NCBI RefSeq assembly: GCF_036320965.1 | Contig: NC_092287.1 | Location: 8,955,297 to 9,019,296, forward strand | Length of the DNA: 64,000 nucleotides | Direction: 5' to 3' | Source: Panulirus ornatus | Taxonomy: Eukaryota > Arthropoda > Malacostraca > Decapoda > Palinuridae | Part shown: positions 5,568 to 50,681 of the stretch, piece by piece | Position numbering within the stretch: the first letter of the stretch is position 1 | Layout: every line of letters begins with the position of its first letter | Made by a program: the position numbers and the translations under genes | Notes under the pieces: model-generated | The model's input: only the letters and a program-made list of their open reading frames with translations | Database searches by the model: none | Told to the model about the DNA's origin: nothing

Positions 5568-7480
5568 GAGGAAAGGAACCTGGATGTTCTGGCTTAAAGT
5601 GAAACAAAGCTCAAGCATACAGGGGAAGAATGGTTTGAGAATGTCTTATGGGTAAAATTTGTGGTTGGTATGTGGGCAAGAGCTATGAAAGGGTTACCAC
5701 TACTGCTAAAACAGGAGTTGTGGGAAAGTGTGAAATAGTGTACCGGAAGTGAGCTCCAGACTGATGTGGGTAAAATGGAAAGTGGGTTGTGAGAGATGGG
5801 TGATAATTAGTGCTTATGCACCTGGCCAGGAGAAGAAAGATGATGAGAGGCAATTGTTTGATAGCAGATGAGTTAGTAGTTATGATGCAAGAGATCAGTG
5901 ATTTAAATGCTAGAGTGAGGAATGTGATAGTTGTGAGTTAAACTGGGGCTGTGAGGTATTCAGTGAAATGAAAAGGAATGGTGACCAGCTTGTGGAGTTA
6001 TGTGCTGAAAAATGACTAGTGATTGGGAAAACCTGGTTTAAAAAGAGGGCCATTATAAGAATATGTGAGTGAGTAGATAAGAGGGCATTACTGGAATACA
6101 TACTAATTGAAAGGCATGCAAAAGAGAGGCCCTTGGATGCAAATGTGTTGAGACGAGCAGCTGGTAGGATGTCTGATCATTATCTGGTGAAGGTTTGAGC
6201 AAAGATTTCAAAGGGTTTAGGAAAAGAGGAATTGATATGAACAAGAAGAGGGAAATGGAGGTAAGTGAGCTTTGAAAAGAGAAATGTGTGAAAAAATAAC
6301 ACAAGAGATTTGGTGAAAAACTGCAAAAGGTGAGAGTAAACAAGGCAAGGAGAGTGAATGACGAATAGGAGATACTCAGGGAAGCAGTCTTGGGATGTGC
6401 AAAAGAAGAGGTGGGAGGTAGGCTTGGTTCAATTTGTGTAGGGATGGGGTGACGAGGGAGGTAAATGGAAGGGTCTTGAAGCAAGTATGCAGTCTGTTGG
6501 CGGTGTGGCGGAACAGAGTGAGTTTTTTTTGCTAATGAAAAAAACATGGGTGGCAGATTCAAATGAAAAACTGCAAAAGTCAGTGTATGAGTTTGATAGA
6601 GTGTGTGGAAGGGGAAGTTGAGAGTAAATGTGAAGAAAAGTAGTTAGTAGGATCAGCAGGGCAGAGGGACAGGTTAGTTGGAAATTCAGTTTGAATGGAG
6701 AAAATTAGTAAGTTAGTCAGATAACTGGGAATAACCATGGCAGCAAATGGAACCACGAAAGTGAAAGAGAGTGATGAAGGCAAAGTGAGTGAAAAAGCAT
6801 TGGGGGGCAAAGGTTTTGGGTACATTGAAGAATGTAAGTGAAAAAAGGTTAGGGGGGAAAAGGTTTTGGGAGCATTGAAGAATGTGTGTAGAGAGAGGAC
6901 AATATTTAGGAGCATCAAAATGGGTATGTTTGAAGGTACAGTAGTCCTAACCTTGTTGTATTGATATGATGCACTGACTAAATGGGAATGTGTGGATACA
7001 GGTGAACGTGTTGGAAATGAAATGATGTGTTGATATGGTTTGACTGAGTAAGTAATAAAAGGATAAAAGAGAGGTGCAATAATAAGAAGTGTGATTCAAA
7101 GAGCTGATGAAGGTTTGCTGAAATGGTTTGGACATATGGAGAGAATGAGTGAGGAGAGGTTGAAGGGGATACATGAGTTAGAACAATGGAATGGAAAATA
7201 CTTTGAGTGGTCAGAGCTAAACAAGTAGGAGGATGAAAGGCATGCATGGGATAATGGGTGAACTGGAGTGATGTGGTATACATGGGACAATGTGTTGTCA
7301 ATGGCCTGAATGAAGATATGAAATAAATGAAGATAACTATGGAAAGGTATGTGAAGCTTGGTTGTGGTTAGGGAGCTGTGGTTTTTGGTGCATTACACAT
7401 GACAGCTAGAGAAAGGATATGAGTGAATGAGATCTTTTCTTCATCTGTTCCTGGTGGAACCTCGCTACTGTGTGTAACGG
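5568..7480 (+). mobile_element. RTE-like LINE copy with internal deletion
   Basis: The copy opens with the APE endonuclease start (ERNLDVLA-stop-SETKLK; a TAA replaces a Leu codon). It continues through the endonuclease (ISAYAPGQEKKDDER; SDHYLV with the catalytic His near 6173-6190) and the linker (to ~6425). It then jumps directly to the region upstream of the FADD motif near 6430-6500, so about 1 kb encoding the RT fingers and palm is deleted. The C-terminal domain and 3' UTR continue to about 7480. Stops and indels are numerous, so it is non-functional. Confidence 0.85.
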
Positions 7481-9639: not shown

Positions 9640-12420
9640 CACGGCCCACTTGACTGCGAATGTGCAACTGGGATCCAACCCACCTCCACAGATACAGCTC
9701 TTAGACTTAGGGCTTCTTCTATCCATTTCTGCAATATCTGCAGTCGTAATTCTAACCTTCTGTTGAACATAACCTGCTTACCTCCTCCACTGATCTTTCT
9801 CACTCTGAAATCCAACCGTCCAAGGCTGCTTTTTTTTTTTCACTATCAGACCAACTGTAATTTCTAACATCATTCCACCCCAAAGGTGGACTTTGTTACT
9901 ACTGTAGTACAAAAACATGCCTTAGGGATCTTGAGTTTCCTAAATTTGATACCATCAGGCTCAAAATCTCTCTACCCTCTATTACTGGGGTCATGTGTTT
10001 TGTTTATCTCTCTTCTCTCTCTCTTCTGGTTCTTCCAACTAAGTACAACTCTTCAATTACTGTATCTGACTTCTTACCAAGAAGCTGTGCTCTCTTCAAG
10101 TCCATATGATGAAATCTACGCAAACAATTTTAATATACATTACAAGGATTGGTTAGGAAGATCCTGATGAAGCTGAGACCTTTTCTTTGTCTCTTCTTAA
10201 CTATCTGGAACAATTAATTAAACACCCTATCTGAGTTCCCAACCACCATAACCACTCTTCTAATGCACTTGACCCTCTCTTTAACTGCTGAATCCTCCCA
10301 CTATTCTTGCACCATTTCTGCACCCTTAGAGTCGTCTGACTATAATCTTATTTCTATTAATTCTAAAGGTGTCATGCCCATCCTCTATCCTAACATAATA
10401 TGCTAATTTTGACACTTTGGAAAAGCTAAGTGGTAATCCATGTGCAGCTTCTTTATCGACTTCTTTAGTGACTGGGAAGGAGTTGTACATCCCATCTTTT
10501 AAATCTTCTCTTCAGTCACTTCCGCTCCGATGCCTGTTGCATCAGGGATGGTACATATCATACCAGGAAACTTTCCTTGCCCTGAAACACACACTGCTTT
10601 CACTGCTGCTTGGAACCATAGCAAAGCTGTTGTTTGAGGGGCATAGTGCACTTTCATAAAAAGAATGTGCTGACTTGACTTCTACTGACAAATCTTTTTG
10701 GTTCTTAACCAAAAGCACCTCAGAGGACTTCTATAATTCATCCTTTCCTCCTTCTCTTCCAATCTAATCAATCTACGACTAACAAAGCCACTCTCTAAAT
10801 TCAGTGCCTTTTTACCCTCTTCCTCAACTCTGAATGATTTACCTTTTAATCCTCGACTCCCAGTGAACTTATGCCATCTCCTATGTTCCAGGTACTCTTC
10901 AAACCTCAGCTTGGTTGGTTGGTTGTTCAGGCTTTAGGACTATCAACTGCCAGGGTCATTAAGGCTGTCAACATCAAGCTACATCTACCAACTGAAAAAT
11001 TTTTAACACCTTCGGGTGTGAAAGATAATTCTAAGGCCACAAACACACTTTCAATATGCATGTGGCCCATGCACTTCAGGTGGTCATGGAATATGACTGA
11101 GAAGGCATATCTCCTCATTTTGTAAAGGAGTGTGCCTCTGAGGTGACATCAATCCCAGCCTGCTTATTTTGCCTTCGTTTGAGAACCCAGACTTTCCTTC
11201 TGCTTGGATGCATGCCTTGGTACAAATCATCCCTATGAAAGGAAACCATTGTAACCCCTCCAACCATTGCTCCATAACTCTCACTTGTTCTGTTCCAAAA
11301 GTACTTGAAGCTCTCCTACACTCTCAATATCTTTCAGATCATTAACATGGATTCTGCAAAGCTAGGTCTACATGATCTGTCCAATGTAATTCACTTAGAA
11401 TTCTTCTCGATGAAACTTTAGTTATAGCCCTTGACATCTCCAAAGAATATGACAAGATGTGGAGTAAATCTTTGCTTTCTAAACTCCCTTCCTTTTGGTT
11501 TTACAGCTTTTCATTGTTCTCTAATGCAAAGGTTCCTCTCTGGCTATTCCATTGCAACATTCATTGATGGACTGATGTCCCCTCCCATCCTATCATCAGT
11601 GGTGTTCTTCAGGGTTCTGTCCTATTGCCTACCCTCTTTCTTTTCACAATAAATGATCTCTATTTTACCTCTAACCTGAATGATTCCACTTTACATACTT
11701 CAACCCACTCCTACCCCCTCCTCTCCCTCTCTTTCATACTTATTCTCTCAATGCAGACCTGAGCAACATTTTACAGCAGAGAAACAGTAACCATGTAAAA
11801 TCTAATGGTACTAAAATACAAATTCTCAATTTCTAAGAATCAGTTCTTTGCCTCTTCAATTTCAAAACACCACAACTCAACCCTGTAATAACATAAATAT
11901 GCTGGGCATAACTATATTCTCCACTCTTTCCTGGAAATCTCACATAATCAACATCACAAAGTCTGCTTCCCAAAAGCTGGGAGTGTTGTTTAGTTGTAAT
12001 TATTGTTTTTGTGAACAACTGTTAAATATCTACGTAAGTTTTGTTTACTTATGTATAGAATACGGTTCACTCATCTGGGTTGGCTCATGTATCACCTCTT
12101 TTCAATCTTCCCTTTCCATATACTTTGATGCTGCTGCTGCTCTCTCTATTCCATAATTATCGTGCTGACCACTGTTCTTGTGAGTTGTCTCCCTGTGTCA
12201 CTATTCCCAGGGTTTGGATATGTGTTTGGCTACTGTATCCCATAGTTCCTGTGTGGAGTCTATTCACTCATGGACCAGCTGTTACGATACCTTCTTGTCT
12301 CATACCTTCTTGTCTCAAACAGTTAAGCTATGGAATTTTCTTTCTTCTTTTGTCTTTTCATCTTCATGTAATCTTTCTTCCTTTATGAGTCAGGTTTAGA
12401 GATGCTTGCAGAGAACCCTG
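9640..12420 (+). mobile_element. Decayed jockey-like non-LTR retrotransposon (second LINE family)
   Basis: This LINE differs from the RTE family. The endonuclease remnant has NNFNIHYKDWLGRS at about 10119-10167, equivalent to the GDFN-HH-DWLGS block of jockey/CR1-type elements. Just downstream is a segment reading ESSDYNLISI (SSDHNLIS, catalytic His lost). RT remnants are LDISKEYDKMWSKSLLSKLP (~11425-11490) and SGVLQGSVLLPTLFLF (~11600-11650, with frame changes). Connection-domain remnants follow: NMLGITIFSTLSWKSHI and ASQKLGVLF, then VKLWNFLSSFVF near the C-terminus (~12320-12400). Frames shift often and the RT active-site DD is lost, so it is a fossil. The part from 11499 onwards belongs to the large tandem duplication. 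The exact clade is uncertain. Confidence 0.7.
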
Positions 12421-12504
12421 ACAGATTTATTTTCTTTTCCTTTTACTTTTTTCGTTCACTTGAGATGGCTTTGATTGGGGTATGGTTTGCCTGTGCTATG
12501 TGGG

Positions 12505-13840
12505 TAACCAAAACAAAAAAATCCTCTAACACTCCTGAAAACATACTGTTCCTCTTCAATGTGATGCTCTGTGCAAGCCACTACCCTCTCAGTCACCTCT
12601 CTCCAATACAACTTACCAGGTACATTCAACAAACTCATAACTGTTAAAATATTCACTTTTCCCCCTTCCCTTTGTACAACAGCACTATATAGGAATTTTG
12701 CCAATCCTCAGACACTTCATCATGAGCTACAAATGCAAAGAAAATCCTAACTGACCAATCAACAATACAATCATCCCCTTTCTAAAGAAATTCAACTGCA
12801 ATCCAATTAACTCCAGCCACTTTATCACACTTCATCTTAAACAAGGTTTTCACTATCACTTTTCTTTTCGGCAGACCACTTGCCATGACTCTTATTTCGC
12901 ATACCTCCATGTCTAGACTTCTCCACATCTGCCATTCTATCAACAAACACATTTAACAATCCTTCAAAATACTTACTCCATCTCAAACATACCAAACTTT
13001 TGCATAAAACACTTTGGCCCAATTGCAGCTCAAGCACTTACATATATCTTCAACCACTCCTGGGCATTGAACAAAATATTAAACTACAAAAGCCCTCCAA
13101 ACCTCACTATTCCCCTTTTCCTACTGTCCTATATCATTTCTTTCTTCATTATTCAAACTCTGAAAAAATGATCTGCAACAGTATCAAACAAAATATCCTA
13201 ATCATACCCACACATCATATCTTAAGATGCAATCACTTCACCACCACCACACTACACACACAAAATGTACAACATATACTAGGTTTCAACCAACCACAAC
13301 CCCCATCCCACACATAACAAATGGCAATAGACATTAACAATCTAACACTGTCCTCTGACATATCCTCACACAGTAGATACTTGACATCACCCTCTACAGC
13401 AATCACTAACTGTATATCTGTTCGCTAAGGCAGAGTCACTCCTCTTGCACATATAAGCACTGCTTCCTTACATACCTCCCACTCCTCACTTAATCCTTAA
13501 TTTCATTTACTCTCAACGGCCACTGTTCACCCAAACCTAGTTTCATTTACTCTTAATTGCCATTGTTCACCCAATCCTTGCTGGTACCTCCTCACGCAAG
13601 TGTCTTTTCCAAACTCTTTCACTTTCACCAACGTATTCCCTTTCACGATTTCTTCTTTTCCCACAGCCTCTATGAACTTTCACCTTCATCAAAAAGTTAA
13701 CACATCCTAACAACTGCTTCTTTCACACCTTTACATCTAAGTCTCTCTTTGGCATGCCTATCAATCTGAACATAATCTAACATCAACCCAACTCATCCAT
13801 GTATACTTAGGTATGTTCCTCTTTAAACCCTTTAAAGCGT
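12505..13840 (-). mobile_element. Old RTE LINE copy (endonuclease end, linker, RT start)
   Basis: A minus-strand diverged RTE copy. Positions 12704-12456 encode an SLLNVPGKLYWREVTERV block and CTEHHIEEEQYVFRSVRG. Positions 13037-12837 hold the linker end (RWSKYFEGLLNVFVDRMADV). Positions ~13840-13560 match the endonuclease end and linker start (a degraded KERLLDVNVL region, then 'cttgcgtgaggaggtacca' on the minus strand). Between ~13050 and ~13500 the sequence is not clearly RTE and may be an insertion or extreme divergence. No intact frame remains. The copy recurs at 19881-21216 in duplication unit 2. Confidence 0.7.
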
Positions 13841-14650
13841 CCAGACAGATATTTATGAAAGTAGAGCGAGAGCTCTATCTGGCTTAAATTGCTTAAGCAA
13901 TGAGTTTTGTGCCTAAAATTCAAGGCTGCTCAATAAGCCTGGGAGGTGGCTGAGGTGGCAGTGCATGACAGTGTGTTCCTGCAGTAAATCATCCTCAACC
14001 CATGCCAATGAGATCACTTTTCAGAAGTTTTCTAAGAAGGAAACTGAGTGGCTTCATGATGGATTTAGAGGACCAGGTAGAATATCCTTAGTTATTTGAC
14101 AATGATAATCCATCATCAGACTGTGGAGAGTGATTTTATGGATGCTAACTCTTGTAGCCAGCATCAAAAGCTGACCAAGAGGAGCCAGAAAAACGTTTTC
14201 TAGCAAAAGCAGAGGCAGTTTTGAAGGCACCCCCTTGCCTTGAAAACACTATCTCACTAGTGTAGCTGGTGATTTTCACAAACTTTTATACTTTCAGGCA
14301 CCACATTACCTTGAAAACACTATCTCACTGGTGTAGCTGGTGATTTTACAAACTTGTATACTTTTCCTGTTATGAAAAAATTACCAAATGATCACACTGA
14401 CCACAGCAATACAAAATTCATGACAACAATGAAAGTGATAATAATCACTAATCACTATTTTGGTGTTGGTAAAATATAGAATTAAACATGCACTGTGGTA
14501 ACTTATATGACACTCAATCCTTACAGTCACACTTTTTAGCATGCTGTGATGTAATATTTATGAAATAGATCCATACATTCTCTGCCTCTCCTGATGTCAC
14601 ACTGATCCTCCTTAATCATATGATGTATTATTTTTACTATTATCACATAA
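13841..14650. other. Unassigned spacer with a 70-bp two-copy tandem repeat
   Basis: No gene is seen. Positions 14227-14296 and 14297-14366 are two copies of a ~70-bp unit containing 'aaaacactatctcact' and 'gtgtagctggtgatttt', differing by a few bases. The stretch is repeated at offset 7376 in unit 2. Confidence 0.7.
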
Positions 14651-14652
14651 TT

Positions 14653-14752
14653 CTAGGTCCCCTTTTGTGGGGCTCTAGGAGTTTCATTCAAAGCTGCACT
14701 CCAAAGATGCAAGGAAATGATGGATTCCTTTGGAGCAAAGAGGTTCTTGATG
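14653..14752 (+). repeat. Unassigned ~100-bp dispersed repeat, copy 1
   Basis: The core 'ggaaatgatggattccttt' with 'ggagcaaagaggttctt' after it, and a 'ggtccccttttgtggggctc' start, is shared with 32729-32834 (inverted), 33446-33548 and 35963-36057. I do not recognise the family. The minus-strand frame over it (14940-14653, 95 codons) shows no known domain and is not called a gene. Confidence 0.6.
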
Positions 14753-14759
14753 AGGGTGT

Positions 14760-15780
14760 ACTCCTTTCTGGCTTTTAAAGATAGTATACTGCCTTTCTGA
14801 AGGTGTCTTTTCTCTATGAAAAATAGAGAAAAGTAAGATACAGAACTGGCTTTACACATGTTGTTGGTCAAAAGCTTTATAAAAAAAAGTTCGTAAAGGA
14901 CAGCAATAAGGAAGACATTTTTCCACATGGCTATCTTCATGATGCAGCATTTATTTCTTTAATAATGCAATGACAGATTCAAAGCAGAAATGCCTATTAC
15001 AGTCGGGAGAGCTACAGACCATAAATAGCAAATTTCCAAGTCCTGATTAAACTATTTAAACACCAAAAAAATACAATCTCCACAATTACCTTGTTCTTAG
15101 GTGGTTTGGCTTCCAGTTTAATGGCCAATGCAACTCTGGCATCTTCTTTCTTCTCTTTATGAAATCCACTCATGACGAATTTGAAGACATCATACCTTTT
15201 TTTGTATCTTTTTGTCCAGAATTTCCTGTAAAAGTTCAAATATATTTTTGACAAAGCAGAAGTTTGTTTCTAATGTGCTAATACTGCCACTAACATATCC
15301 TGTACTCTGTACAGACACATCCAAAACTTCCTTAAATAAAAAAGAAAAAAAGAATTTGTTGACAGAGCTCTTGTGCGGGAGACTAACAAGTTAAAGTGCT
15401 CCTTATGCTACACCTAGCTCCATGATGCTTATGTTACTTCTCACTATGGCCTTAACAGTCCTTCTTCTTTCAGTTTATGAAATCAAAATGACTAACAAAA
15501 AACAGAGAAGTGGCTAGTTGGTTATCCTGAATCTTATTGCAAGGAAGTGGCCTCCACCTCACATCTCTCTTCTGGAGGAATGTATCTATAAAATACTGCT
15601 GTCTATTCAAAAATCTGGGAAGCATCACTCAAGTTTTGGTGGAAACATTACTCAAGCCTCCTGGCTTCATTGTTTCAGTATACAAGCTTTCCTCTACTTA
15701 CGACCTATGTGACTTGCGACCATCCATACATACGACCGGAAAAGAATATCAATCAAAAAATAAAATTATGAAATATGAAC
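14760..15780. other. Unassigned AT-rich spacer
   Basis: No gene or known repeat is recognised. Several short frames (60-83 codons) exist but show no domain and are consistent with chance. It is repeated in unit 2 (22136-23156). Confidence 0.5.
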
Positions 15781-15784
15781 CACG

Positions 15785-16873
15785 ATGAGAAGAAAGGAGA
15801 TATAGGTAGTATGATAGAGGAAAGAAACCTGGATGTTCTGGCTCTGAGTGAAACAAAGCTCAAGGGTAAAGGGGAAGAATGGTTTGGAAAAGTCTTGGGA
15901 GTAAAGTCAGGGGTTGGTGAAGGGACAAGAGCTTTGGAAGGAGTAGCACTACTCCTGAAGAAGGAGTTGTGGGAGCATGTGATATAGTGTAAGAAAATAA
16001 TGAGTGTGTCAGCAGCTTTGGTTCCCGAGACTGGGTATTTGTGATGGGTGATTTAAATACAAAAGTGAGGGTATGACGGGTGTACACGGGGTATTCAATG
16101 CTGTGAATGGAAATGCTTGTGGATTTGTGTGCTGAAAAAACATTGGTGATTGGAAATACCTGATTTAAAAAGATACACAAAAGTTACATTTGTGAATACG
16201 AAAGATGGTCAAAGAGCATTATTAGATTATGTCTTAATTGAAAGGCATGAAAAGAGAGACTTTTGGATGTAAATGTGCTGAGGAGGGCAGATTGTGGGAT
16301 GTCAAATCACTATTTTGTGGAGGCAAAGGTGAAGATCTGTAGAGGTTTTCAAAAAAGAAAGAGGAAAATGCTGGGGAGAAGATAGTTGTGCAAGTAAGTG
16401 TGCTTGCAAAGGAGATTTGTGTGAGGAAGTACCAGGAGAGATTGAGTGTAGAATGGCAAAAGGTGAGAGCAAATGACATGGGACGAGTGAGTGAGGAATG
16501 GGATGTATTTAGAGATGCAGTGACTGCATATGCAAAAGATGCATGTGGCATGAGAAAGGTGGGAAGTGGGTAGATTAGAAAGGGTAGAGAGTAGCGGGAT
16601 GAAGAAGTAAAGTTGTTAGTGAAAGAGAAAAGAGAGGCACTTGGATGATACTTACAAGGAAGAAGTGCAAATGACTGGGAGATGTATAAAAGAGAGGTCA
16701 AAAGGAAGATGCAAAGGCTGAAAAAGAGGGCAAATGGGAGTTGGGGTGAGAAAGTATCATTAAACTTTAGGGAGAATTAAAAGATGTTCTGGAAAGAGGT
16801 AAATAGTGTGCATTGACAAGAAAACAAATGGGAACATCGTTGAAGGGGTAAGGGGGGAAGTGATAACAAGTAG
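15785..16873 (+). mobile_element. RTE LINE fragment: endonuclease and linker
   Basis: The copy starts with the APE-type endonuclease (15775-15987), with LDVLALSETKLKGKGEEWF holding the catalytic Glu. About 100 residues that should follow, the WVIISAYAPG block, are missing near 15990-16030. The rest of the endonuclease follows (GDLNTKV, ALLDYVLIERHE), then MSNHYFVEAKVK; SDH has become SNH, so the catalytic Asp is lost. The linker (16388-16573; YQERLSVEWQKVRANDMG, AKDACGMRKVG) continues to VITSS at 16873, where it is cut off by another copy. Multiple stops are present. Confidence 0.85.
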
Positions 16874-17229
16874 TTTTCAGAAAAGAAGAGTGAATGTTGG
16901 GGTGAAGAGGGTGGTGAGAGTAAGTGAGCTTGGGAAGGAGACTTGTGTGAGGAAGTACCAGGAGAGAATGAGTACAGAATGGAAAAAGGTGAGAACAATG
17001 GAAGTAAGGGGAGTGGGGGGAGGAATGGGATGTATTTAGGGAATCAGTGATGGATTGTGCAAAAGATGCTTGTGGCATGAGAAGAGTGGGAGGTGGGTTG
17101 ATTAGAAAGGGTAGTGAGTGGTGGGATGAAGAAGTAAGATTATTAGTGAAAGAGAAGAGAGAGGCATTTGGACGATTTTTTGCAGGGAAAAAATGCAAAT
17201 GAGTGGGAGATGTATAAAAGAAAGAGACA
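16874..17229 (+). mobile_element. RTE LINE linker fragment, second copy in tandem
   Basis: Just after the previous fragment the linker starts again (FQKRRVNVGVKRVVRVSE, KYQERMSTEWKKVR, AKDACGMRRVGGG, FGRF...GKNANEWEMYKRKRQ) and stops at ~17229. Its first 49 bases are present in inverted orientation at 17243-17291. In duplication unit 2 the same stretch is one open frame of 199 codons (24181-24780). Here it is broken by extra G and T in two homopolymer runs. Confidence 0.85.
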
Positions 17230-17242
17230 GGATAAATTGATA

Positions 17243-17716
17243 ACTTACTCTCACCACCCTCTTCACCCCAACATTCACTCTTCTTTTCTGAAAACCCATA
17301 CAAATCTTCACCTTAGCCTCCACAAGATAATGATCAGACATCCCTCCAGTTGTACCTCTCAGCACATTAACATCCAAAAGTCTCTCTTTCGCGCGTCTGT
17401 CAATTAACACATAATCCAATAACGCTCTCTGGCCATCTCTCCTACTTACATAAGTATACTTATGTATATCTCGCTTTTTAAACCAGGTATTCCCAATCAT
17501 CAGTCCTTTTTCAGCACATAAATCTACAAGCTCTTCACCATTTCCATTTACAACACTGAACACCCCATGTATACCAATTATTCCCTCAACTGCCACATTA
17601 CTCACCTTTGCATTCAAATCACCCATCACTATAACCCGGTCTCGTGCATCAAAACCACTAACACACTCATTCAGCTGCTCCCAAAACACTTGCCTCTCAT
17701 GATCTTTCTTCTCATG
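17243..17716 (-). mobile_element. RTE LINE fragment: APE endonuclease, well preserved
   Basis: Reading leftwards, an uninterrupted endonuclease segment runs from EKKDHERQVFWEQLNECVSG through VIVMGDLNAKV (APE core motif GD-N), LCAEKGLMIGNTWFKK, YTYVSRRDGQRALLDYVLID and LLDVNVLRGTTGGMSDHYLV (catalytic SDH) to KVKICMGFQKRRVNVGVKR. There is no stop or frameshift over ~155 residues. The N-terminal catalytic Glu region lies outside the fragment. The frame reads on from the tail of the adjacent LINE copy (start near 17854), a chance fusion. Confidence 0.88.
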
Positions 17717-17719
17717 CCC

Positions 17720-18366
17720 ATGCTTTGTCGCTGTCTCCCGCGTTTGCGAGGTAGCGCAAGGAAACAGACGAAAGAAATGGCCCAACCCACCCCCATACAC
17801 ATGTATATACATACGTCCACACACGCAAATATACATATCTACACAGCTTTCCATGGTTTACCCCAGACGCTTCACATGCCCTGATGCAATCCACTGACAG
17901 CACCTCAACACCGGTATACCACATCGATCCAATTCACTCTATTCCTTGCCCTCCTTTCACCCTCCTGCATGTTCAGGCCCCGATCACACAAAATCTTTTT
18001 CACTCCATCTTTCCACCTCCAATTTGGTCTCCCACTTCTCCTCGTTCCCTCCACCTCCGACACATATATCCTCTTGGTCAATCTTTCCTCACTCATTCTC
18101 TCCATGTGCCCAAACCATTTCAAAACACCCTCTTCTGCTCTCTCAACCACGCTCTTTTTATTTCCACACATCTCTCTTACCCTTACGTTACTTACTCGAT
18201 CAAACCACCTCACACCACGCATTGTCCTCAAACATCTCATTTCCAGCATATCCATCCTCCTGCGCACAACTCTATCCATAGCCCACGCCTCGCAACCATA
18301 CAACATTGTTGGAACCACTATTCCTTCAAACATACCCATTTTTGCTATCCGAGATAATGTTCTTGA

Positions 18367-18368
<2 letters not shown>
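17720..18368 (-). mobile_element. RTE LINE copy: C-terminal domain and 3' UTR, cut at a TA tract
   Basis: The 3' end 'ctttgtcgctgtctcccgcg' at ~17725 is followed by the 3' UTR. An open frame at 18339-17905 covers the C-terminal domain (MGMFEGIVVPTMLYGCEAWA, CLRTMRGVRWFDRVSN, WFGHMERMSEERLTKRIYV, ending VNWIDVVYRC). The copy is truncated exactly where the TA microsatellite begins (18369). Its very short 3' UTR lacks the ~200 bases with the 'gaaccacagctccc' block found in longer copies, as does the copy at 43035-44120. The two share a subfamily. Confidence 0.9.

Positions 18369-18425
<57 letters not shown>
18369..18425. repeat. (TA)n microsatellite
   Basis: A nearly pure TA run of about 57 bases lies between the truncated 5' end of one RTE copy and the 3' tail of another. 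The matching tract in unit 2 is 25742-25800. Confidence 0.98.
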
Positions 18426-18435
<10 letters not shown>

Positions 18436-18449
18436 TTATTTATTTATTT

Positions 18450-18660
18450 TTGCTTTGTCGCTGTCTCCCGTGTTAGCGAGGTAGCGCAAGGAAACAGACG
18501 AAAGAATGGCCCAACCCGCCCACATACACATGTATATACATACATGTCCACCCATGCACAATATACATCTATGTATGCGGGTGGGTTGGGCCATTCTTTC
18601 ATCTGCTTCCTTGCGCTACCTCACTAACGCAGTAGACAGTGACAAAATATAATAGAAAAA
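18450..18660. mobile_element. Two RTE 3' tails in inverted orientation
   Basis: Positions 18451-18530 are an RTE 3' end on the minus strand ('ctttgtcgctgtctcccgtg' onwards). Positions ~18575-18650 are the same 3' end on the plus strand ('ttgggccattctttcatctg' to 'gacagtgacaaaatataata'), with ~40 bases of ACAT-type sequence between. The RNA of either strand could fold into a long hairpin. Confidence 0.85.
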
Positions 18661-18678
18661 AAAAATACATATTTTACA

Positions 18679-18825
18679 AAGGATGTAAGGCATGTGTATG
18701 AGTAGGAGGAGAGGAAAGTCACTGGTTCCCAGTGAATATTGGTTTGTGGCAGGGGTGTGTGATGTCTCCATGGTTGTTTAATTTGTTTATGGATATGGTG
18801 GTTAGGGAAGTGAATGCAAGAGTTT

Positions 18826-18875
<50 letters not shown>

Positions 18876-18877
18876 GA
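18679..18877 (+). mobile_element. RTE LINE RT fragment running into (GA)n, unit 1
   Basis: The segment encodes the RT block before the active site ('ggatgtaaggcatgtg', then LWQGCVMSPWLFNLFMDM and VVREVNARVLE). It runs into a GA microsatellite (18831-18877) that starts at the natural 'ttggagagaggggc' codons of the element. In unit 1 the LINE never resumes; duplication unit 2 begins immediately after the GA tract. Confidence 0.85.
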
Positions 18878-19800
18878 TTTTACGCTTTTCTTTTTTCTTA
18901 ATGCAAAGGTTTCCCTCTGGCTTTCCATTGCAACTTCTTATGGATGTGTCCCCCCCCCTCCTTCATCAGGGGTTTGTTTTCGGGTTCTGCCCCTATTGCC
19001 TACCCTCTTTCTTTTCCCAAATAAATTCTCTATTTTACCTTTTAACCTGAAATGATTCCACTTTAAAACTTCAACCCCACTCCTACCCCCTTCCCCCTTC
19101 CCTCTTTTCATCTTATTCTCTCAAAGACCTGAGCAACTTTTTACAGCAAAAGAAACAGTAACCTTTGTAAAATCTAATGGTACTAAAATAAAAATTTCTC
19201 AATTTCTAAGAATCAGTTTTTTTTGCCTCTTCATTTTCAAAACACCACAACTAAACCCCTGTAATAACATAAATATGCTGGGCATAACTATATTCTCCAC
19301 TCTTTCCTGGAAATCTCACATAATCAACATCACAAAGTCTGCTTCCCAAAAGCTGGGAGTGTTGTTTAGTTGTAATTATTGTTTTTGTGAACAACTGTTA
19401 AATATCTACGTAAGTTTTGTTTACTTATGTATAGAATACGGTTCACTCATCTGGGTTGGCTCATGTATCACCTCTTTTCAATCTTCCCTTTCCATATACT
19501 TTGATGCTGCTGCTGCTCTCTCTATTCCATAATTATCGTGCTGACCACTGTTCTTGTGAGTTGTCTCCCTGTGTCACTATTCCCAGGGTTTGGATATGTG
19601 TTTGGCTACTGTATCCCATAGTTCCTGTGTGGAGTCTATTCACTCATGGACCAGCTGTTACGATACCTTCTTGTCTCATACCTTCTTGTCTCAAACAGTT
19701 AAGCTATGGAATTTTCTTTCTTCTTTTGTCTTTTCATCTTCATGTAATCTTTCTTCCTTTATGAGTCAGGTTTAGAGATGCTTGCAGAGAACCCTGACAG
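18878..19800 (+). mobile_element. Jockey-like LINE remnant (unit 2)
   Basis: The RT and C-terminal part of the LINE at 9640-12420, with the same frameshifts from 19262 on (MLGITIFSTLSWKSHI at 19275; VKLWNFLSSFVF near 19700). The endonuclease half is absent because the duplication starts inside the RT. Confidence 0.75.
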
Positions 19801-19880
19801 ATTTATTTTCTTTTCCTTTTACTTTTTTCGTTCACTTGAGATGGCTTTGATTGGGGTATGGTTTGCCTGTGCTATGTGGG

Positions 19881-21216
19881 TAACCAAAACAAAAAAATCC
19901 TCTAACACTCCTGAAAACATACTGTTCCTCTTCAATGTGATGCTCTGTGCAAGCCACTACCCTCTCAGTCACCTCTCTCCAATACAACTTACCAGGTACA
20001 TTCAACAAACTCATAACTGTTAAAATATTCACTTTTCCCCCTTCCCTTTGTACAACAGCACTATATAGGAATTTTGCCAATCCTCAGACACTTCATCATG
20101 AGCTACAAATGCAAAGAAAATCCTAACTGACCAATCAACAATACAATCATCCCCTTTCTAAAGAAATTCAACTGCAATCCAATTAACTCCAGCCACTTTA
20201 TCACACTTCATCTTAAACAAGGTTTTCACTATCACTTTTCTTTTCGGCAGACCACTTGCCATGACTCTTATTTCGCATACCTCCATGTCTAGACTTCTCC
20301 ACATCTGCCATTCTATCAACAAACACATTTAACAATCCTTCAAAATACTTACTCCATCTCAAACATACCAAACTTTTGCATAAAACACTTTGGCCCAATT
20401 GCAGCTCAAGCACTTACATATATCTTCAACCACTCCTGGGCATTGAACAAAATATTAAACTACAAAAGCCCTCCAAACCTCACTATTCCCCTTTTCCTAC
20501 TGTCCTATATCATTTCTTTCTTCATTATTCAAACTCTGAAAAAATGATCTGCAACAGTATCAAACAAAATATCCTAATCATACCCACACATCATATCTTA
20601 AGATGCAATCACTTCACCACCACCACACTACACACACAAAATGTACAACATATACTAGGTTTCAACCAACCACAACCCCCATCCCACACATAACAAATGG
20701 CAATAGACATTAACAATCTAACACTGTCCTCTGACATATCCTCACACAGTAGATACTTGACATCACCCTCTACAGCAATCACTAACTGTATATCTGTTCG
20801 CTAAGGCAGAGTCACTCCTCTTGCACATATAAGCACTGCTTCCTTACATACCTCCCACTCCTCACTTAATCCTTAATTTCATTTACTCTCAACGGCCACT
20901 GTTCACCCAAACCTAGTTTCATTTACTCTTAATTGCCATTGTTCACCCAATCCTTGCTGGTACCTCCTCACGCAAGTGTCTTTTCCAAACTCTTTCACTT
21001 TCACCAACGTATTCCCTTTCACGATTTCTTCTTTTCCCACAGCCTCTATGAACTTTCACCTTCATCAAAAAGTTAACACATCCTAACAACTGCTTCTTTC
21101 ACACCTTTACATCTAAGTCTCTCTTTGGCATGCCTATCAATCTGAACATAATCTAACATCAACCCAACTCATCCATGTATACTTAGGTATGTTCCTCTTT
21201 AAACCCTTTAAAGCGT
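19881..21216 (-). mobile_element. Old RTE LINE copy (unit 2)
   Basis: The counterpart of 12505-13840, identical as far as can be read by eye, with the same broken frames (20080-19832 with CTEHHIEEEQYVFRSVRG; 20413-20213 with RWSKYFEGLLNVFVDRMADV). Confidence 0.75.
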
Positions 21217-23160
21217 CCAGACAGATATTTATGAAAGTAGAGCGAGAGCTCTATCTGGCTTAAATTGCTTAAGCAATGAGTTTTGTGCCTAAAATTCAAG
21301 GCTGCTCAATAAGCCTGGGAGGTGGCTGAGGTGGCAGTGCATGACAGTGTGTTCCTGCAGTAAATCATCCTCAACCCATGCCAATGAGATCACTTTTCAG
21401 AAGTTTTCTAAGAAGGAAACTGAGTGGCTTCATGATGGATTTAGAGGACCAGGTAGAATATCCTTAGTTATTTGACAATGATAATCCATCATCAGACTGT
21501 GGAGAGTGATTTTATGGATGCTAACTCTTGTAGCCAGCATCAAAAGCTGACCAAGAGGAGCCAGAAAAACGTTTTCTAGCAAAAGCAGAGGCAGTTTTGA
21601 AGGCACCCCCTTGCCTTGAAAACACTATCTCACTAGTGTAGCTGGTGATTTTCACAAACTTTTATACTTTCAGGCACCACATTACCTTGAAAACACTATC
21701 TCACTGGTGTAGCTGGTGATTTTACAAACTTGTATACTTTTCCTGTTATGAAAAAATTACCAAATGATCACACTGACCACAGCAATACAAAATTCATGAC
21801 AACAATGAAAGTGATAATAATCACTAATCACTATTTTGGTGTTGGTAAAATATAGAATTAAACATGCACTGTGGTAACTTATATGACACTCAATCCTTAC
21901 AGTCACACTTTTTAGCATGCTGTGATGTAATATTTATGAAATAGATCCATACATTCTCTGCCTCTCCTGATGTCACACTGATCCTCCTTAATCATATGAT
22001 GTATTATTTTTACTATTATCACATAATTCTAGGTCCCCTTTTGTGGGGCTCTAGGAGTTTCATTCAAAGCTGCACTCCAAAGATGCAAGGAAATGATGGA
22101 TTCCTTTGGAGCAAAGAGGTTCTTGATGAGGGTGTACTCCTTTCTGGCTTTTAAAGATAGTATACTGCCTTTCTGAAGGTGTCTTTTCTCTATGAAAAAT
22201 AGAGAAAAGTAAGATACAGAACTGGCTTTACACATGTTGTTGGTCAAAAGCTTTATAAAAAAAAGTTCGTAAAGGACAGCAATAAGGAAGACATTTTTCC
22301 ACATGGCTATCTTCATGATGCAGCATTTATTTCTTTAATAATGCAATGACAGATTCAAAGCAGAAATGCCTATTACAGTCGGGAGAGCTACAGACCATAA
22401 ATAGCAAATTTCCAAGTCCTGATTAAACTATTTAAACACCAAAAAAATACAATCTCCACAATTACCTTGTTCTTAGGTGGTTTGGCTTCCAGTTTAATGG
22501 CCAATGCAACTCTGGCATCTTCTTTCTTCTCTTTATGAAATCCACTCATGACGAATTTGAAGACATCATACCTTTTTTTGTATCTTTTTGTCCAGAATTT
22601 CCTGTAAAAGTTCAAATATATTTTTGACAAAGCAGAAGTTTGTTTCTAATGTGCTAATACTGCCACTAACATATCCTGTACTCTGTACAGACACATCCAA
22701 AACTTCCTTAAATAAAAAAGAAAAAAAGAATTTGTTGACAGAGCTCTTGTGCGGGAGACTAACAAGTTAAAGTGCTCCTTATGCTACACCTAGCTCCATG
22801 ATGCTTATGTTACTTCTCACTATGGCCTTAACAGTCCTTCTTCTTTCAGTTTATGAAATCAAAATGACTAACAAAAAACAGAGAAGTGGCTAGTTGGTTA
22901 TCCTGAATCTTATTGCAAGGAAGTGGCCTCCACCTCACATCTCTCTTCTGGAGGAATGTATCTATAAAATACTGCTGTCTATTCAAAAATCTGGGAAGCA
23001 TCACTCAAGTTTTGGTGGAAACATTACTCAAGCCTCCTGGCTTCATTGTTTCAGTATACAAGCTTTCCTCTACTTACGACCTATGTGACTTGCGACCATC
23101 CATACATACGACCGGAAAAGAATATCAATCAAAAAATAAAATTATGAAATATGAACCACG
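21217..23160. other. Unassigned spacer (unit 2 copy) with dispersed repeat
   Basis: The counterpart of 13841-15784. It includes the two-copy 70-bp tandem repeat (~21603-21742) and the dispersed repeat (22029-22128). No gene is recognised. Confidence 0.6.
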
Positions 23161-24602
23161 ATGAGAAGAAAGGAGATATAGGTAGTATGATAGAGGAAAG
23201 AAACCTGGATGTTCTGGCTCTGAGTGAAACAAAGCTCAAGGGTAAAGGGGAAGAATGGTTTGGAAAAGTCTTGGGAGTAAAGTCAGGGGTTGGTGAAGGG
23301 ACAAGAGCTTTGGAAGGAGTAGCACTACTCCTGAAGAAGGAGTTGTGGGAGCATGTGATATAGTGTAAGAAAATAATGAGTGTGTCAGCAGCTTTGGTTC
23401 CCGAGACTGGGTATTTGTGATGGGTGATTTAAATACAAAAGTGAGGGTATGACGGGTGTACACGGGGTATTCAATGCTGTGAATGGAAATGCTTGTGGAT
23501 TTGTGTGCTGAAAAAACATTGGTGATTGGAAATACCTGATTTAAAAAGATACACAAAAGTTACATTTGTGAATACGAAAGATGGTCAAAGAGCATTATTA
23601 GATTATGTCTTAATTGAAAGGCATGAAAAGAGAGACTTTTGGATGTAAATGTGCTGAGGAGGGCAGATTGTGGGATGTCAAATCACTATTTTGTGGAGGC
23701 AAAGGTGAAGATCTGTAGAGGTTTTCAAAAAAGAAAGAGAAAATGCTGGGGAGAAGATAGTTGTGCAAGTAAGTGTGCTTGCAAAGGAGATTTGTGTGAG
23801 GAAGTACCAGGAGAGATTGAGTGTAGAATGGCAAAAGGTGAGAGCAAATGACATGGGACGAGTGAGTGAGGAATGGGATGTATTTAGAGATGCAGTGACT
23901 GCATATGCAAAAGATGCATGTGGCATGAGAAAGGTGGGAAGTGGGTAGATTAGAAAGGGTAGAGAGTAGCGGGATGAAGAAGTAAAGTTGTTAGTGAAAG
24001 AGAAAAGAGAGGCACTTGGATGATACTTACAAGGAAGAAGTGCAAATGACTGGGAGATGTATAAAAGAGAGGTCAAAAGGAAGATGCAAAGGCTGAAAAA
24101 GAGGGCAAATGGGAGTTGGGGTGAGAAAGTATCATTAAACTTTAGGGAGAATTAAAAGATGTTCTGGAAAGAGGTAAATAGTGTGCATTGACAAGAAAAC
24201 AAATGGGAACATCGTTGAAGGGGTAAGGGGGGAAGTGATAACAAGTAGTTTTCAGAAAAGAAGAGTGAATGTTGGGGTGAAGAGGGTGGTGAGAGTAAGT
24301 GAGCTTGGGAAGGAGACTTGTGTGAGGAAGTACCAGGAGAGAATGAGTACAGAATGGAAAAAGGTGAGAACAATGGAAGTAAGGGGAGTGGGGGAGGAAT
24401 GGGATGTATTTAGGGAATCAGTGATGGATTGTGCAAAAGATGCTTGTGGCATGAGAAGAGTGGGAGGTGGGTTGATTAGAAAGGGTAGTGAGTGGTGGGA
24501 TGAAGAAGTAAGATTATTAGTGAAAGAGAAGAGAGAGGCATTTGGACGATTTTTGCAGGGAAAAAATGCAAATGAGTGGGAGATGTATAAAAGAAAGAGA
24601 CA
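23161..24602 (+). mobile_element. RTE endonuclease/linker fragments in tandem (unit 2)
   Basis: The counterpart of 15785-17229. The endonuclease and first linker (23161-24248) are followed by a restarted linker (24249-24602). Here the second linker lies in one open frame, 24181-24780 (199 codons), running from the end of the first fragment (VRGEVITSS) through YQERMSTEWKKVR, EEWDVFRESVMDCAKDACGM and WWDEEVRLLVKEKREAFGRF, then out of the element into antisense endonuclease sequence. Unit 1 has the frame broken by single-base homopolymer changes. Confidence 0.85.
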
Positions 24603-24616
24603 GGATAAATTGATAA

Positions 24617-25739
24617 CTTACTCTCACCACCCTCTTCACCCCAACATTCACTCTTCTTTTCTGAAAACCCATACAAATCTTCACCTTAGCCTCCACAAGA
24701 TAATGATCAGACATCCCTCCAGTTGTACCTCTCAGCACATTAACATCCAAAAGTCTCTCTTTCGCGCGTCTGTCAATTAACACATAATCCAATAACGCTC
24801 TCTGGCCATCTCTCCTACTTACATAAGTATACTTATGTATATCTCGCTTTTTAAACCAGGTATTCCCAATCATCAGTCCTTTTTCAGCACATAAATCTAC
24901 AAGCTCTTCACCATTTCCATTTACAACACTGAACACCCCATGTATACCAATTATTCCCTCAACTGCCACATTACTCACCTTTGCATTCAAATCACCCATC
25001 ACTATAACCCGGTCTCGTGCATCAAAACCACTAACACACTCATTCAGCTGCTCCCAAAACACTTGCCTCTCATGATCTTTCTTCTCATGCCCATGCTTTG
25101 TCGCTGTCTCCCGCGTTTGCGAGGTAGCGCAAGGAAACAGACGAAAGAAATGGCCCAACCCACCCCCATACACATGTATATACATACGTCCACACACGCA
25201 AATATACATATCTACACAGCTTTCCATGGTTTACCCCAGACGCTTCACATGCCCTGATGCAATCCACTGACAGCACCTCAACACCGGTATACCACATCGA
25301 TCCAATTCACTCTATTCCTTGCCCTCCTTTCACCCTCCTGCATGTTCAGGCCCCGATCACACAAAATCTTTTTCACTCCATCTTTCCACCTCCAATTTGG
25401 TCTCCCACTTCTCCTCGTTCCCTCCACCTCCGACACATATATCCTCTTGGTCAATCTTTCCTCACTCATTCTCTCCATGTGCCCAAACCATTTCAAAACA
25501 CCCTCTTCTGCTCTCTCAACCACGCTCTTTTTATTTCCACACATCTCTCTTACCCTTACGTTACTTACTCGATCAAACCACCTCACACCACGCATTGTCC
25601 TCAAACATCTCATTTCCAGCATATCCATCCTCCTGCGCACAACTCTATCCATAGCCCACGCCTCGCAACCATACAACATTGTTGGAACCACTATTCCTTC
25701 AAACATACCCATTTTTGCTATCCGAGATAATGTTCTTGA

Positions 25740-25741
<2 letters not shown>
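24617..25741 (-). mobile_element. RTE endonuclease fragment and C-terminal copy (unit 2)
   Basis: The counterpart of 17243-18368. The endonuclease is open from EKKDHERQVFWEQLNECV to KVKICMGFQKRRVNVGVKR (GDLNAKV and SDHYLV present). It is followed to the right by the LINE 3' end (~25098) and the C-terminal domain (25712-25278), which is cut at the TA tract at 25742. Confidence 0.88.
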
Positions 25742-25810
<69 letters not shown>

Positions 25811-26033
25811 TTATTTATTTATTTTTGCTTTGTCGCTGTCTCCCGTGTTAGCGAGGTAGCGCAAGGAAACAGACGAAAGAATGGCCCAACCCGCCCACAT
25901 ACACATGTATATACATACATGTCCACCCATGCACAATATACATCTATGTATGCGGGTGGGTTGGGCCATTCTTTCATCTGCTTCCTTGCGCTACCTCACT
26001 AACGCAGTAGACAGTGACAAAATATAATAGAAA
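25742..26033. repeat. (TA)n tract and paired inverted RTE tails (unit 2)
   Basis: A TA run at 25742-25800, then RTE 3' tails on the minus (~25824-25903) and plus (~25948-26025) strands, as in unit 1. Confidence 0.88.
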
Positions 26034-26053
26034 AAAAAAATACATATTTTACA

Positions 26054-26200
26054 AAGGATGTAAGGCATGTGTATGAGTAGGAGGAGAGGAAAGTCACTGG
26101 TTCCCAGTGAATATTGGTTTGTGGCAGGGGTGTGTGATGTCTCCATGGTTGTTTAATTTGTTTATGGATATGGTGGTTAGGGAAGTGAATGCAAGAGTTT

Positions 26201-26261
<61 letters not shown>

Positions 26262-26437
26262 GGGGGGGGGGGGGAAGCATGCAGTATGTTGTGGATGAGA
26301 GGGCTTGGGAAGTGAGTCAGTTATTGTTCGCTGATGATACGGTGCTGGTGGCTGATTCGGGAGAGAAACTGCAGAGGTTGGTGACGAGTTTGATAAAATG
26401 CGTGAAAGGATAAAGTTGAAGGTAAATGTGAATAACA
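26054..26437 (+). mobile_element. RTE RT fragment with an internal (GA)n(G)n expansion
   Basis: The RT fragment runs LWQGCVMSPWLFNLFMDM, then a GA microsatellite (26203-26260) and a run of about 14 G (26261-26274), then resumes with RAWEVSQLLFADDTVLVADS (FADD active site). Frame 26189-26413 stays open through the microsatellite as an (Arg-Glu)n tract. The normal element has only 'ttggagagaggggcaag' here, so the repeat grew inside coding sequence. The copy ends at ~26437 at VNVNKSK and unique DNA follows. This is the true right flank of the duplicated block. Confidence 0.88.
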
Positions 26438-30329: not shown

Positions 30330-31912
30330 CAAGGAAAAATATATGGATTTGTATGTAGCATTTATGGATCTGGAGAAGGCATATAATAGAGTTGATAGAG
30401 GTGCTCTGTGGAAGGTATTAAGAATATATGGTGCGGGAGGTAAGTTGTTAGAAGCAGTGAAAAGTTTTTATCGAGGATGTAAGGCATGTATGTGTACGTG
30501 TAGGAAGAGAGGAAAGTGACTGGTTCTCAGTGAATGTTCATTTGGGGCAGGGATGTGTGATGTCTCCATGGTTATTTAATTTGTTTATGGATGGGGTTGT
30601 TAGGGAGGTGAATGCAAGAGTTTTGGAAAGAGGGGCAAGTATGCAGTCTGTTGTGGATGAGAGAGCTTGGGAAGTGAGTCAGTTGTTGTTCGCTGATGAT
30701 ACAGCGCTGGTAGCTGATTCGGGTGAGAAACTGCAGAAGCTGGTGAATGAGTTTGGTAAAGTGTGTGAAAGAAGAAAGCTGAGAGGAAATGTGAACAAGA
30801 GTAAGGTTGTTAGGTACAGTAGGGTTGAGGGACAAGTTAATTGGGAGGCAAGTTTGAATGAAGACAAACTGGAGGAAGTGAAGTGTTTTAGATATCTGGG
30901 AGTGGATTTGGCAGTGGATGGAACCATGGAAGTGGAAAGGAATCATAGGGTGGGGGAGGGAGCGAAAGTTCTGGGAGCATTGAAAAATGTGTGGAAGTCG
31001 AGAACGTTATCTTGGAAAGCAAAAATGGGTATGTTTGAAGGAACAGTAGTTTCAACAATGTTATATGGTTGCGTGGCATGGGCTATAGATAGAATTGTGC
31101 GGAGGAGGGTGGATGTGCTGGAAATGAGATGTTTGAGGGCAATATTTGGTGTGAGGTGGTTTGATCGAGTAAGTAATGAAAGGGTAAGAGAGAAGTGTGG
31201 TAATAAAAAAGTGTGCTTGAGAGAGCAGAAGAGGGTGTTTTGAAATGTTTTGGTCACATGGAGAGAATGAGTGAGGGAAGATTGACAAAGAGGATATATG
31301 TGTCAGAGGTGGAGGGAACAAGAAGTGGGAGACCAAATTGGAGGTGGAAAGATGGAGCGAAAAAGATCTTGAGTGATCGGGGTTTGAACATGCAGGAGGG
31401 TGAAAGGCGTGCAAGAAATAGAGTGAATTGGAACAATGTGGTATACCGGGGTCGAAGTGCTGTCAATGGATTGAACCAGAGCATGTGAAGCGTCTGGGGT
31501 ACACCATGGAAAGTTTTGTGGGGCCTGGATGTGGAAAGGGAGCTGTGGTTTCAGTGCATTATACATGACAGCTAGAGACTGAGTGAGAACGAATGTGGCC
31601 TTTGTTGTCTTTTCCTAGCGCTACCTCGCGCACATGTGGGGGGAGGAGGCTGTCATTTCATGTGTGGCGGGTTGGCGACGGGAATGAATAAGGGCAGACA
31701 GTATGAATTATGTACATGTGTATATATGTATATGTCTGAGTGTGTATATACATATGTATACGTAGAGATGTACAGGTATGTATACATGCGTGTGTCGACA
31801 CGTATGTAAATACATGTGTATGTGGGTGGGTGGGTTGCGCCATTCTTTCGTCTGTTTCCTTGCGCTACCTCGCTAACGTGGGAGACAGCGACAAAGTATA
31901 ATAAAAAAAAAT
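30330..31912 (+). mobile_element. RTE-like LINE copy, RT palm to 3' tail, well preserved
   Basis: 5'-truncated at the KYMDLYVAFMDLEKAYNRVD block (30330; motif A). A 4-base 'tgta' duplication near 30488-30496 shifts the frame. The main frame 30530-31243 then covers LGQGCVMSPWLFNLFMDG, LLFADDTALVADS (active site), the thumb, and the C-terminal domain to FDRVSNERVREKCGNKK. A 1-base loss near 31209 shifts the rest into 31213-31488 (CFGHMERMSEGRLTKRIYV, GRPNWRWKDG, NNVVYRG, SAVNGLNQ). The 3' UTR continues to the terminal 'gacagcgacaaagtataata' and A-rich tail at ~31912. Only two small indels break ~390 codons, so it is a recent copy. Confidence 0.93.
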
Positions 31913-43034: not shown

Positions 43035-44118
43035 TTTTCCGCTGTCTCCCGCGTTTGCGAGGTAGCACAAGGAAACAGACGAAAGAAATGGCCCAACCCA
43101 CCCCCATACACATGTATATACATACGTCCACACACGCAAATATACATACCTACACAGCTTTCCATGGTTTACCCCAGACGCTTCAGATGCCCTGATTCAA
43201 TCCACTGACAGCACGTCAACCCCGGTATACCACATCGATCCAATTCACTCTATTCCTTGCCCTCCTTTCACCCTCCTGCATGTTCAGGCCCCGATCACAC
43301 AAAATCTTTTTCACTCCATCTTTCCACCTCCAATTTGGTCTCCCACTTCTCCTCGTTCCCTCCACCTCCGACACATATATCCTCTTGGTCAATCTTTCCT
43401 CACTCATTCTCTCCATGTGCCCAAACCATTTCAAAACATCCTCTTCTGCTCTCTCAACCACGCACTTTTTATTTCCACACATCTCTCTTACTTTTACGTT
43501 ACTTACTCGATCAAACCACCCCACACCACACATTGTCCTCAAACATCTCATTTCCAGCACATCCATCCTCCTGCGCACAACTCTATCCATAGCCCACGCC
43601 TCGCAACCATACAACATTGTTGGAACCACTATTCCTTCAAACATACCCATTTTTGCTTTCCGAGATAATGTTCTCGACTTCCACACATTCTTCAAGGCTC
43701 CCAGGATTTTCGCCACCTCCCCCACCCTATGATCCACTTCCGCTGCCAGATCCACTCCCAGATATCTAAAACACTTTACTTCCTCCAGTTTTTCTCCATT
43801 CAAACTTACCTCCCAATTGACTTGACCCTCAACCCTACTGTACCTAATAACCTTGCTCTTATTCACATTTACTCTTAACTTTCTTCTTTCACACACTTTA
43901 CCAAACTCAGTCACCAGCTTCTGCAGTTTCTCACATGAATCAGCCACCAGCGCTGTATCATCAGCGAACAACAACTGACTCACTTCCCAAGCTCTCTCAT
44001 CCCCAACAGACTTCATACTTGCCCCTCTTTCCAAAACTCTTGCATTCACCTCCCTAACAACCCCATCCATAAACAAATTAAACAACCATGGAGACATCAC
44101 ACACCCTTGCCGCAAACC

Positions 44119-49626: not shown

Positions 49627-50681
49627 TCAGTCTTGATTATGTTGGTCCCAGATGAAGGGCTCCTCTTCAGTGGGAATATTCGTGTAGTGCATTAGACAAT
49701 TCCTTTGGGAGAGGATCCTTCGATACTGTAAACATTCAAAAGCATTCTTTCCTTTATGATTCTCCACATGTCTCAGTAAATGGTACCTGCAGGAGAAAGT
49801 CTTTTGGCAATGAACATTCATATGGCTTCTTTCCTGTATGAATAGTCATATCCTGTGATAAGGTAAGTTTTCCTAAAGAAGGTCCTATGGCACTGCAAAC
49901 ATTCATATGGTTTCTTCCCTGTATGAGCAGTCATGTGCTGCACTAAAAGACTTCTCCGAGAGAAGGATTATACGAAACATGAACATTCATATAACCTCTC
50001 TCCTGTGTGAAAAGTCATGTGATCCACTAACTTACTTTTCTGGGAGTTCTTATGACAACGAGAACATTCATGTGTCTTCTTTCTCGGTTGATTGGACATG
50101 TGCCTCATAAAAGCTCTTCTATGGCAGAAGGTCTTTTGGCACTGTGAACATTTGTATGTTCTCTCTCTTATGTGAATATTCAAGTGTTCCACTAAAGTAC
50201 TCCTCTGGTAGAATATCTTTTGGCAATGGGAGCATTCATATCCCTTCTTTTCTGTATGAATAGTCATGTGCTGCACTACATCACTCCTCCAAGAGAAGGT
50301 CTTTTGGTAATGTGAACATTCATATGGTTCTTCTCCTGTATGAATATTCATGTGCCTCACTAAAACATTCTTCCAGAAGAAGGTCTTTTGACAATGTGAA
50401 CATTCATATGGTTCTTCTCCTGTATAAATATTCATGTGCCTCACTAAAAAATTCTTCCAGAAGGTCTTTTGGCAATGTGAACATTCATATGGTTCTTCTC
50501 CTGTATGAATATTCGTGTGCCTCACTAAAACATTCTTCCAGAAGAAGGTCTTCTGGCAATGTGAACGTTTAAACTGCTTCTTTCTTCGGTGAACTTCCAT
50601 ATGATGTACAAGTTCATGATGTTTCAGAAAGCATTCATTGCACTTACAACACTTGTTAAAGCTACTTACATGTGTGAGCAT
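49627..50681 (-). pseudogene. C2H2 zinc-finger gene, decayed (about eleven fingers or remnants)
   Basis: The main frame 50681-49968 (237 codons) has eight tandem finger positions joined by HTGEEPYEC-type linkers. Fingers 1, 4 and 6 keep the full C-x2-C-x12-H-x3-H pattern (finger 1 as CCKC...HMEVH). Finger 2 has lost its first Cys (RSHC), finger 5 its second (CSHY), finger 3 its last His (NIY) and one residue, finger 7 its last His (SNQ), and finger 8 is one residue short. Finger 9 is hit by an in-frame TAA at 49968-49970. Reading through, finger 9-10 remnants (RRSLLVQHMTAHTGKKPYEC, then HRTFFRKTYL) continue. After two small indels, 49821-49627 holds CQKTFSCRYHLLRH and a last degenerate finger. 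Family role: sequence-specific DNA binding in the nucleus. Given so many lost ligands a pseudogene is likely, though a truncated protein is possible. Confidence 0.8.

What the first reader, a model, noticed from the sequence alone, without database searches (positions are those of the whole stretch)
11499..26252. Near-identical 7.37-kb head-to-tail duplication made of nested transposons
Two adjacent units match almost perfectly over ~7 kb. The offset changes only by three single-base homopolymer differences, although the content includes old, heavily decayed elements. So the duplication happened recently or does not exist (for example unmerged haplotypes or an overlap join). The left breakpoint lies in a jockey-like LINE and the right breakpoint in a GA microsatellite inside an RTE copy.
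Basis: seen in the sequence. Interest (0 to 1): 0.75.

Follow-up and report, generated by a model that had tools for sequence, protein, structure and literature searches.

The report
False tandem duplication from assembly join
The two almost identical 7.4-kb neighbours are most likely one piece of DNA written twice by the genome assembly, because the second copy starts with nearly 400 bases of error-like sequence right at the join.

Summary
The direct repeat is in the letters: 11499-18877 matches 18878-26252 over 7,395 columns. The finding missed its most telling feature: 55 of 60 differing columns fall in the first ~380 bases of unit 2, from the join on (86% identity). The other 6,987 bases have no substitution and four small indels.

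The patch does not look like natural divergence. All 18 substitutions copy a neighbouring base, all 17 inserted bases extend a run, none of 20 deleted bases came from a run. Its run structure is the most extreme of 2,121 sliding windows and was reached in 0 of 20,000 simulations under each of two mutation models. 28 of 28 reverse-transcriptase homologs match unit 1 there, none unit 2. The join's other side is a GA array; GA-rich sequence is a documented site of HiFi dropout.

Best reading: overlapping contig ends of one haplotype joined without collapsing, a 'homotype' false duplication as the Vertebrate Genomes Project describes it. Without reads a real recent duplication is not excluded, but is unlikely. 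Known kind of artefact; low interest.

The parts
11499..18877 (.). Unit 1 of the apparent duplication. The LINE frame continues from the left flank into it; its right end is cut inside the GA array.
18878..26252 (.). Unit 2 of the apparent duplication. Its right flank continues through the GA array, G14 and the rest of the RT element.
18878..19265 (.). Smeared patch: isolated bases lost and neighbouring runs lengthened, overall length nearly kept; first difference after six matching bases, last at 19256 (global alignment) or 19259 (BLAST). Read as the unpolished start of a contig or read.
11499..11890 (+). Clean counterpart of the patch in unit 1. Frame still recognisable as reverse transcriptase (LINE), though decayed, with stops.
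18877..18878 (.). Join between the units: GA array ending ...TAGAGAGA directly followed by TTTTAC. No microhomology.
18828..18877 (.). GA array at the end of unit 1 (25 copies), truncated relative to unit 2
26203..26274 (.). Full GA array (29.5 copies) plus a run of 14 G in unit 2. Five other copies of the element in the window have only GGA(A/G)AGAGGGG here.
19267..26252 (.). Rest of unit 2, identical to 11891-18877 except for four indel events (five columns) and no substitution

Best explanation
The locus holds one unit, not two. One assembled piece, running from the left, ended inside a GA array at 18877. A second piece started about 7.37 kb upstream of that point. Its first ~380 bases rest on poor sequence: one or few low-quality reads, left unpolished. 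The two ends overlapped, but the noisy start and the GA/G array kept the overlap from being recognised, so the pieces were placed end to end without trimming. The letters then show a head-to-tail duplication. Shown: the repeat, the clustering and character of the differences, the GA/G14 context, the absence of substitutions elsewhere. Inferred: the contig ends, the missed overlap, the sequencing technology.
For: (1) 55 of 60 differing columns lie in the first 399 columns and begin after six matching bases from the join; 0 substitutions in the other 6,987 bp. (2) Error-like spectrum: 18 of 18 substitutions copy a neighbour (8.0 expected for random bases), 17 of 17 inserted bases extend a run, 0 of 20 deleted bases were in a run. 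(3) Run-compressed fraction 0.566 in the patch against 0.702 in unit 1 and a window mean of 0.726 (s.d. 0.036); none of 2,121 sliding 390-bp windows is as low. 0 of 20,000 simulations under random mutation and 0 of 20,000 under slippage-type indels reach it. (4) 28 of 28 homologous RT proteins match unit 1 and none matches unit 2 over the patch at E up to 10; 27 of the 28 in one frame, P0028 in another. (5) Blunt join at a GA array. Lack of HiFi coverage across GA-rich sequence is reported in PMC9186530, and dropout at long A/G- or T/C-rich sequence in PMC7545148. (6) VGP: homotype duplications often lie at contig boundaries and are about as long as the reads (PMC8081667).
Against: There are no Ns in the window, whereas scaffold joins usually leave some (recalled). 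No reads, depth or assembly graph could be examined, and the window's own genome could not be reached. The sequencing method is unknown, so the dropout argument is conditional; the reported dropouts of PMC7545148 concern long tracts, and these arrays are only 50 and 72 bp. The three other GA/CT arrays (36870, 59159, 61498), two of them longer, are assembled with unremarkable run-compressed fractions in both 390-bp flanks, although one flank (right of 36870) has a highish 13 runs of four or more; so GA alone does not break this assembly. The 28 homologs were found with a unit-1 query, which favours unit 1. The counts of substitutions and indels depend on the alignment; the run-compressed fraction does not.
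Confidence: 0.92

Rival explanations
1. A real, very recent tandem duplication by end joining, with a poorly sequenced stretch just after the junction.
For: Clear repeat with native flanks on both outer sides. No Ns. Zero substitutions outside the patch fit a young event.
Against: The noisy stretch would have to begin at the junction by coincidence. The junction's GA array is shorter than the one that was crossed at 26203-26274. A real junction should have normal read support (inference).
Confidence: 0.06
2. Two haplotypes of one locus (heterotype false duplication) placed in tandem.
For: Would also give two adjacent near-copies in one assembly, and is the commoner source overall in PMC9516828.
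Against: 0 substitutions in 6,987 bp; only run-length and TA-unit differences. The patch has an error-like, not an allelic, spectrum.
Confidence: 0.015
3. A real duplication whose junction-proximal ~380 bp were rewritten by error-prone repair synthesis.
For: Differences begin at the join and stop abruptly.
Against: The loss of single bases into neighbouring runs at nearly constant length fits no repair spectrum that I can recall (recalled, not tested).
Confidence: 0.005

Closest known systems
Homotype false duplication (Vertebrate Genomes Project, PMC8081667; also PMC9516828; passages seen)
   Same: Sequence repeated without haplotype variants, kilobase scale, locally differing consensus quality
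   Different: No gap (N) between the copies here; contig boundary, depth and k-mer copy number could not be examined
Heterotype false duplication (same papers)
   Same: Two near-copies placed in tandem in one assembly
   Different: Needs haplotype differences; no substitution in 6,987 bp
Natural tandem segmental duplication
   Same: Head-to-tail layout with native outer flanks
   Different: Substitutions are confined to one junction-proximal patch with an error-like spectrum

Membership tests
Homotype false duplication | Repeated sequence without haplotype-specific variants | tested here: met
   0 substitutions in 6,987 bp outside the patch; tested on the assembly letters only, not on reads
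Homotype false duplication | Sequence-error signature in one copy | tested here: met
Homotype false duplication | Lies at a contig boundary | tested here: inconclusive
   Indirect only: GA array on one side, smear on the other; no Ns, no assembly graph
Homotype false duplication | k-mer copy number above expectation, low read depth | not testable with these tools
   No reads available
Heterotype false duplication | Haplotype differences between the copies | tested here: not met
   0 substitutions outside the patch; patch spectrum is not allelic
Natural recent tandem duplication | Differences, if any, spread along the unit with a mutational spectrum | tested here: not met
   55 of 60 differing columns in the first 399, with a smear spectrum
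Natural recent tandem duplication | Reads spanning the junction at normal depth | not testable with these tools
   No reads available; own genome not reached

The most novel reading that the evidence does not exclude
A real tandem duplication made by a repair event that copied the first ~380 bases with a polymerase that collapses single bases into neighbouring runs while nearly keeping length, leaving a hypermutated patch exactly at the breakpoint.
Probability: 0.005. Interest if true: 0.7.

Novelty: not a real feature. Interest (0 to 1): 0.08.

Why it matters
It most likely describes no biological event. It is useful as a worked example: a homopolymer smear confined to one side of a tandem junction can expose a probable false duplication from the assembly letters alone, without reads. 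Such joins would inflate repeat content and counts of recent segmental duplications in repeat-rich genomes (inference).

Tried and rejected
Sequencing trouble caused simply by a GA array: rejected as the whole cause, because the 390-bp flanks of three other GA/CT arrays, and the flanks of the unit-2 GA array, have unremarkable run-compressed fractions (0.687 to 0.836; one flank, right of 36870, has 13 runs of four or more against a window mean of 6.7, s.d. 3.2).

Natural microsatellite or homopolymer slippage in the patch: rejected by simulation (0 of 20,000) and because single bases, not run members, are lost. Reverse polarity (unit 2 ancestral, unit 1 derived): 0 of 20,000 simulations reach unit 1's compressed fraction, although 4 of 20,000 reach its count of long runs.

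Unmerged haplotypes: no substitutions outside the patch.

Identifying the species: four 15-base words from the window's repeat found no paper, and one paper search on decapod repeats was seen as a listing only. I recall this repeat type from decapod crustaceans; no call tests that.

Pfam on short LINE pieces: 3 of 3 pieces of the left LINE gave no family; of the other 7 pieces, 3 gave weak matches, all below Pfam's cut-offs, and 4 gave none.

Papers: PMC8081667 and PMC9516828, passages; PMC9186530 and PMC7545148, passages; all others only as search listings with starts of abstracts. The 48 papers counted (10 listed) were not opened.

Full report
Observation. A self-comparison of the window gives one outstanding direct repeat, 11499-18877 against 18878-26252, 7,395 columns, 99.16% identity. 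The base-by-base list shows that the differences are not scattered. BLAST places 57 of 62 differing columns between 11505 and 11884 (18884-19259 in unit 2), including all 26 mismatches. A global affine alignment of that stretch gives 18 substitutions, 17 inserted and 20 deleted bases, all within the first 399 columns, where identity is 86%. The remaining 6,987 bases have no substitution and four indel events: a G at 16363, a G at 17015, a T at 17176, and one TA unit at 18369; the longest perfect run is 4,472 bases.

Character of the patch. In 18878-19265 all 18 substituted bases equal a neighbouring base, against 8.0 expected if the new base were random. All 17 inserted bases extend a run, and none of the 20 deleted bases had been part of a run. 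Single bases vanish into lengthened neighbouring runs while the total length stays almost the same (452 against 449 bases in the aligned stretch). This does not rest on the alignment alone: the fraction of bases left after collapsing runs is 0.566 in the patch, 0.702 in its counterpart and 0.726 (s.d. 0.036) over the window. None of 2,121 sliding 390-bp windows is as low, and the patch has 24 runs of four or more against 10. Mutating unit 1 with the same number of changes never gives such values: 0 of 20,000 with random changes and 0 of 20,000 with slippage-type indels. With unit 2 as ancestor, 0 of 20,000 reach unit 1's compressed fraction, although 4 of 20,000 reach its count of long runs.

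Polarity. The counterpart in unit 1 lies in a decayed LINE reverse transcriptase. A search with unit 1's frame, extended into the left flank, returned 28 proteins, all with the RVT_1 domain. Aligned back to the two stretches, 28 of 28 match unit 1 (27 in one frame, P0028 in another) and none matches unit 2 at E up to 10. The query came from unit 1, so the test is not neutral, but the absence of any unit-2 match in any frame agrees with the run statistics: unit 2 holds the spoiled letters.

Junction. The join is blunt...GATAGAGAGA directly followed by TTTTAC, without microhomology to 11498 or 26253. On its left is the GA array of unit 1 (18828-18877). In unit 2 the array is longer and is followed by 14 G, then by the rest of the RT element; five other copies of that element in the window have only GGA(A/G)AGAGGGG at this point. 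So the outer flanks, left of 11499 and right of 26252, both look native, and only the inner join is foreign. Three other GA/CT arrays in the window have unremarkable flanks by run-compressed fraction, so the smear does not follow from a GA array as such.

Interpretation. A contig end inside a GA/G array and a contig start made of poor sequence would lie exactly where the two sides of the join lie, if two overlapping contig ends were set end to end. The Vertebrate Genomes Project describes this kind: homotype duplications, near contig boundaries or from under-collapsed sequence caused by sequencing errors, about as long as the reads, told from heterotype ones by differing consensus quality among other signs; it also notes that a duplicated sequence acts as an attractor for reads during polishing (PMC8081667, passages; classification used in PMC9516828, passages, where heterotype is the main source and sequencing error a minor one). 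Lack of HiFi coverage in GA-rich sequence is reported in PMC9186530 (passages), and dropout at long A/G- or T/C-rich sequence in PMC7545148 (passages); the arrays here are only 50 and 72 bp, and that this assembly used HiFi reads is not known. So the GA part of the argument is the weaker one; the smear carries the case. A natural duplication would need a second, independent failure that begins at its junction. Two haplotypes would be expected to show allelic differences, which are absent outside the patch.

Limits. No reads, depth or assembly graph were at hand, and the window's own genome did not answer. There are no Ns, so the joining step is inferred. I put the artefact reading at 0.92.

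Noticed in passing
17729-18369, 25102-25742 and 43040-43680: A 641-bp stretch shared at 97.7% identity and without gaps, closer than most other in-window matches of this RT element listed; perhaps a younger copy.
   Followed up: no
6788-6885: A 50-base unit repeated twice, rich in short runs, inside an old RT-element copy, largely as an insert relative to the copy near 30700-31300; among the lowest run-compressed fractions in 120-bp windows.
   Followed up: partly
37353-39623: Minisatellite of about 65 copies of a 35-base unit, also reported with a 173-base period.
   Followed up: no
63365-64000: Tandem array of a 54-base unit, 96% matches, running to the window end.
   Followed up: no
25803-26047 (counterpart from 18428 in unit 1): Inverted pair: 25829-26047 matches the reverse complement of 25803-26021 at 79%, next to RT-element pieces.
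   Followed up: no
49790-50566: Tandem repeats of 84 bases; the unit length suggests a C2H2 zinc-finger array (recalled, not tested).
   Followed up: no
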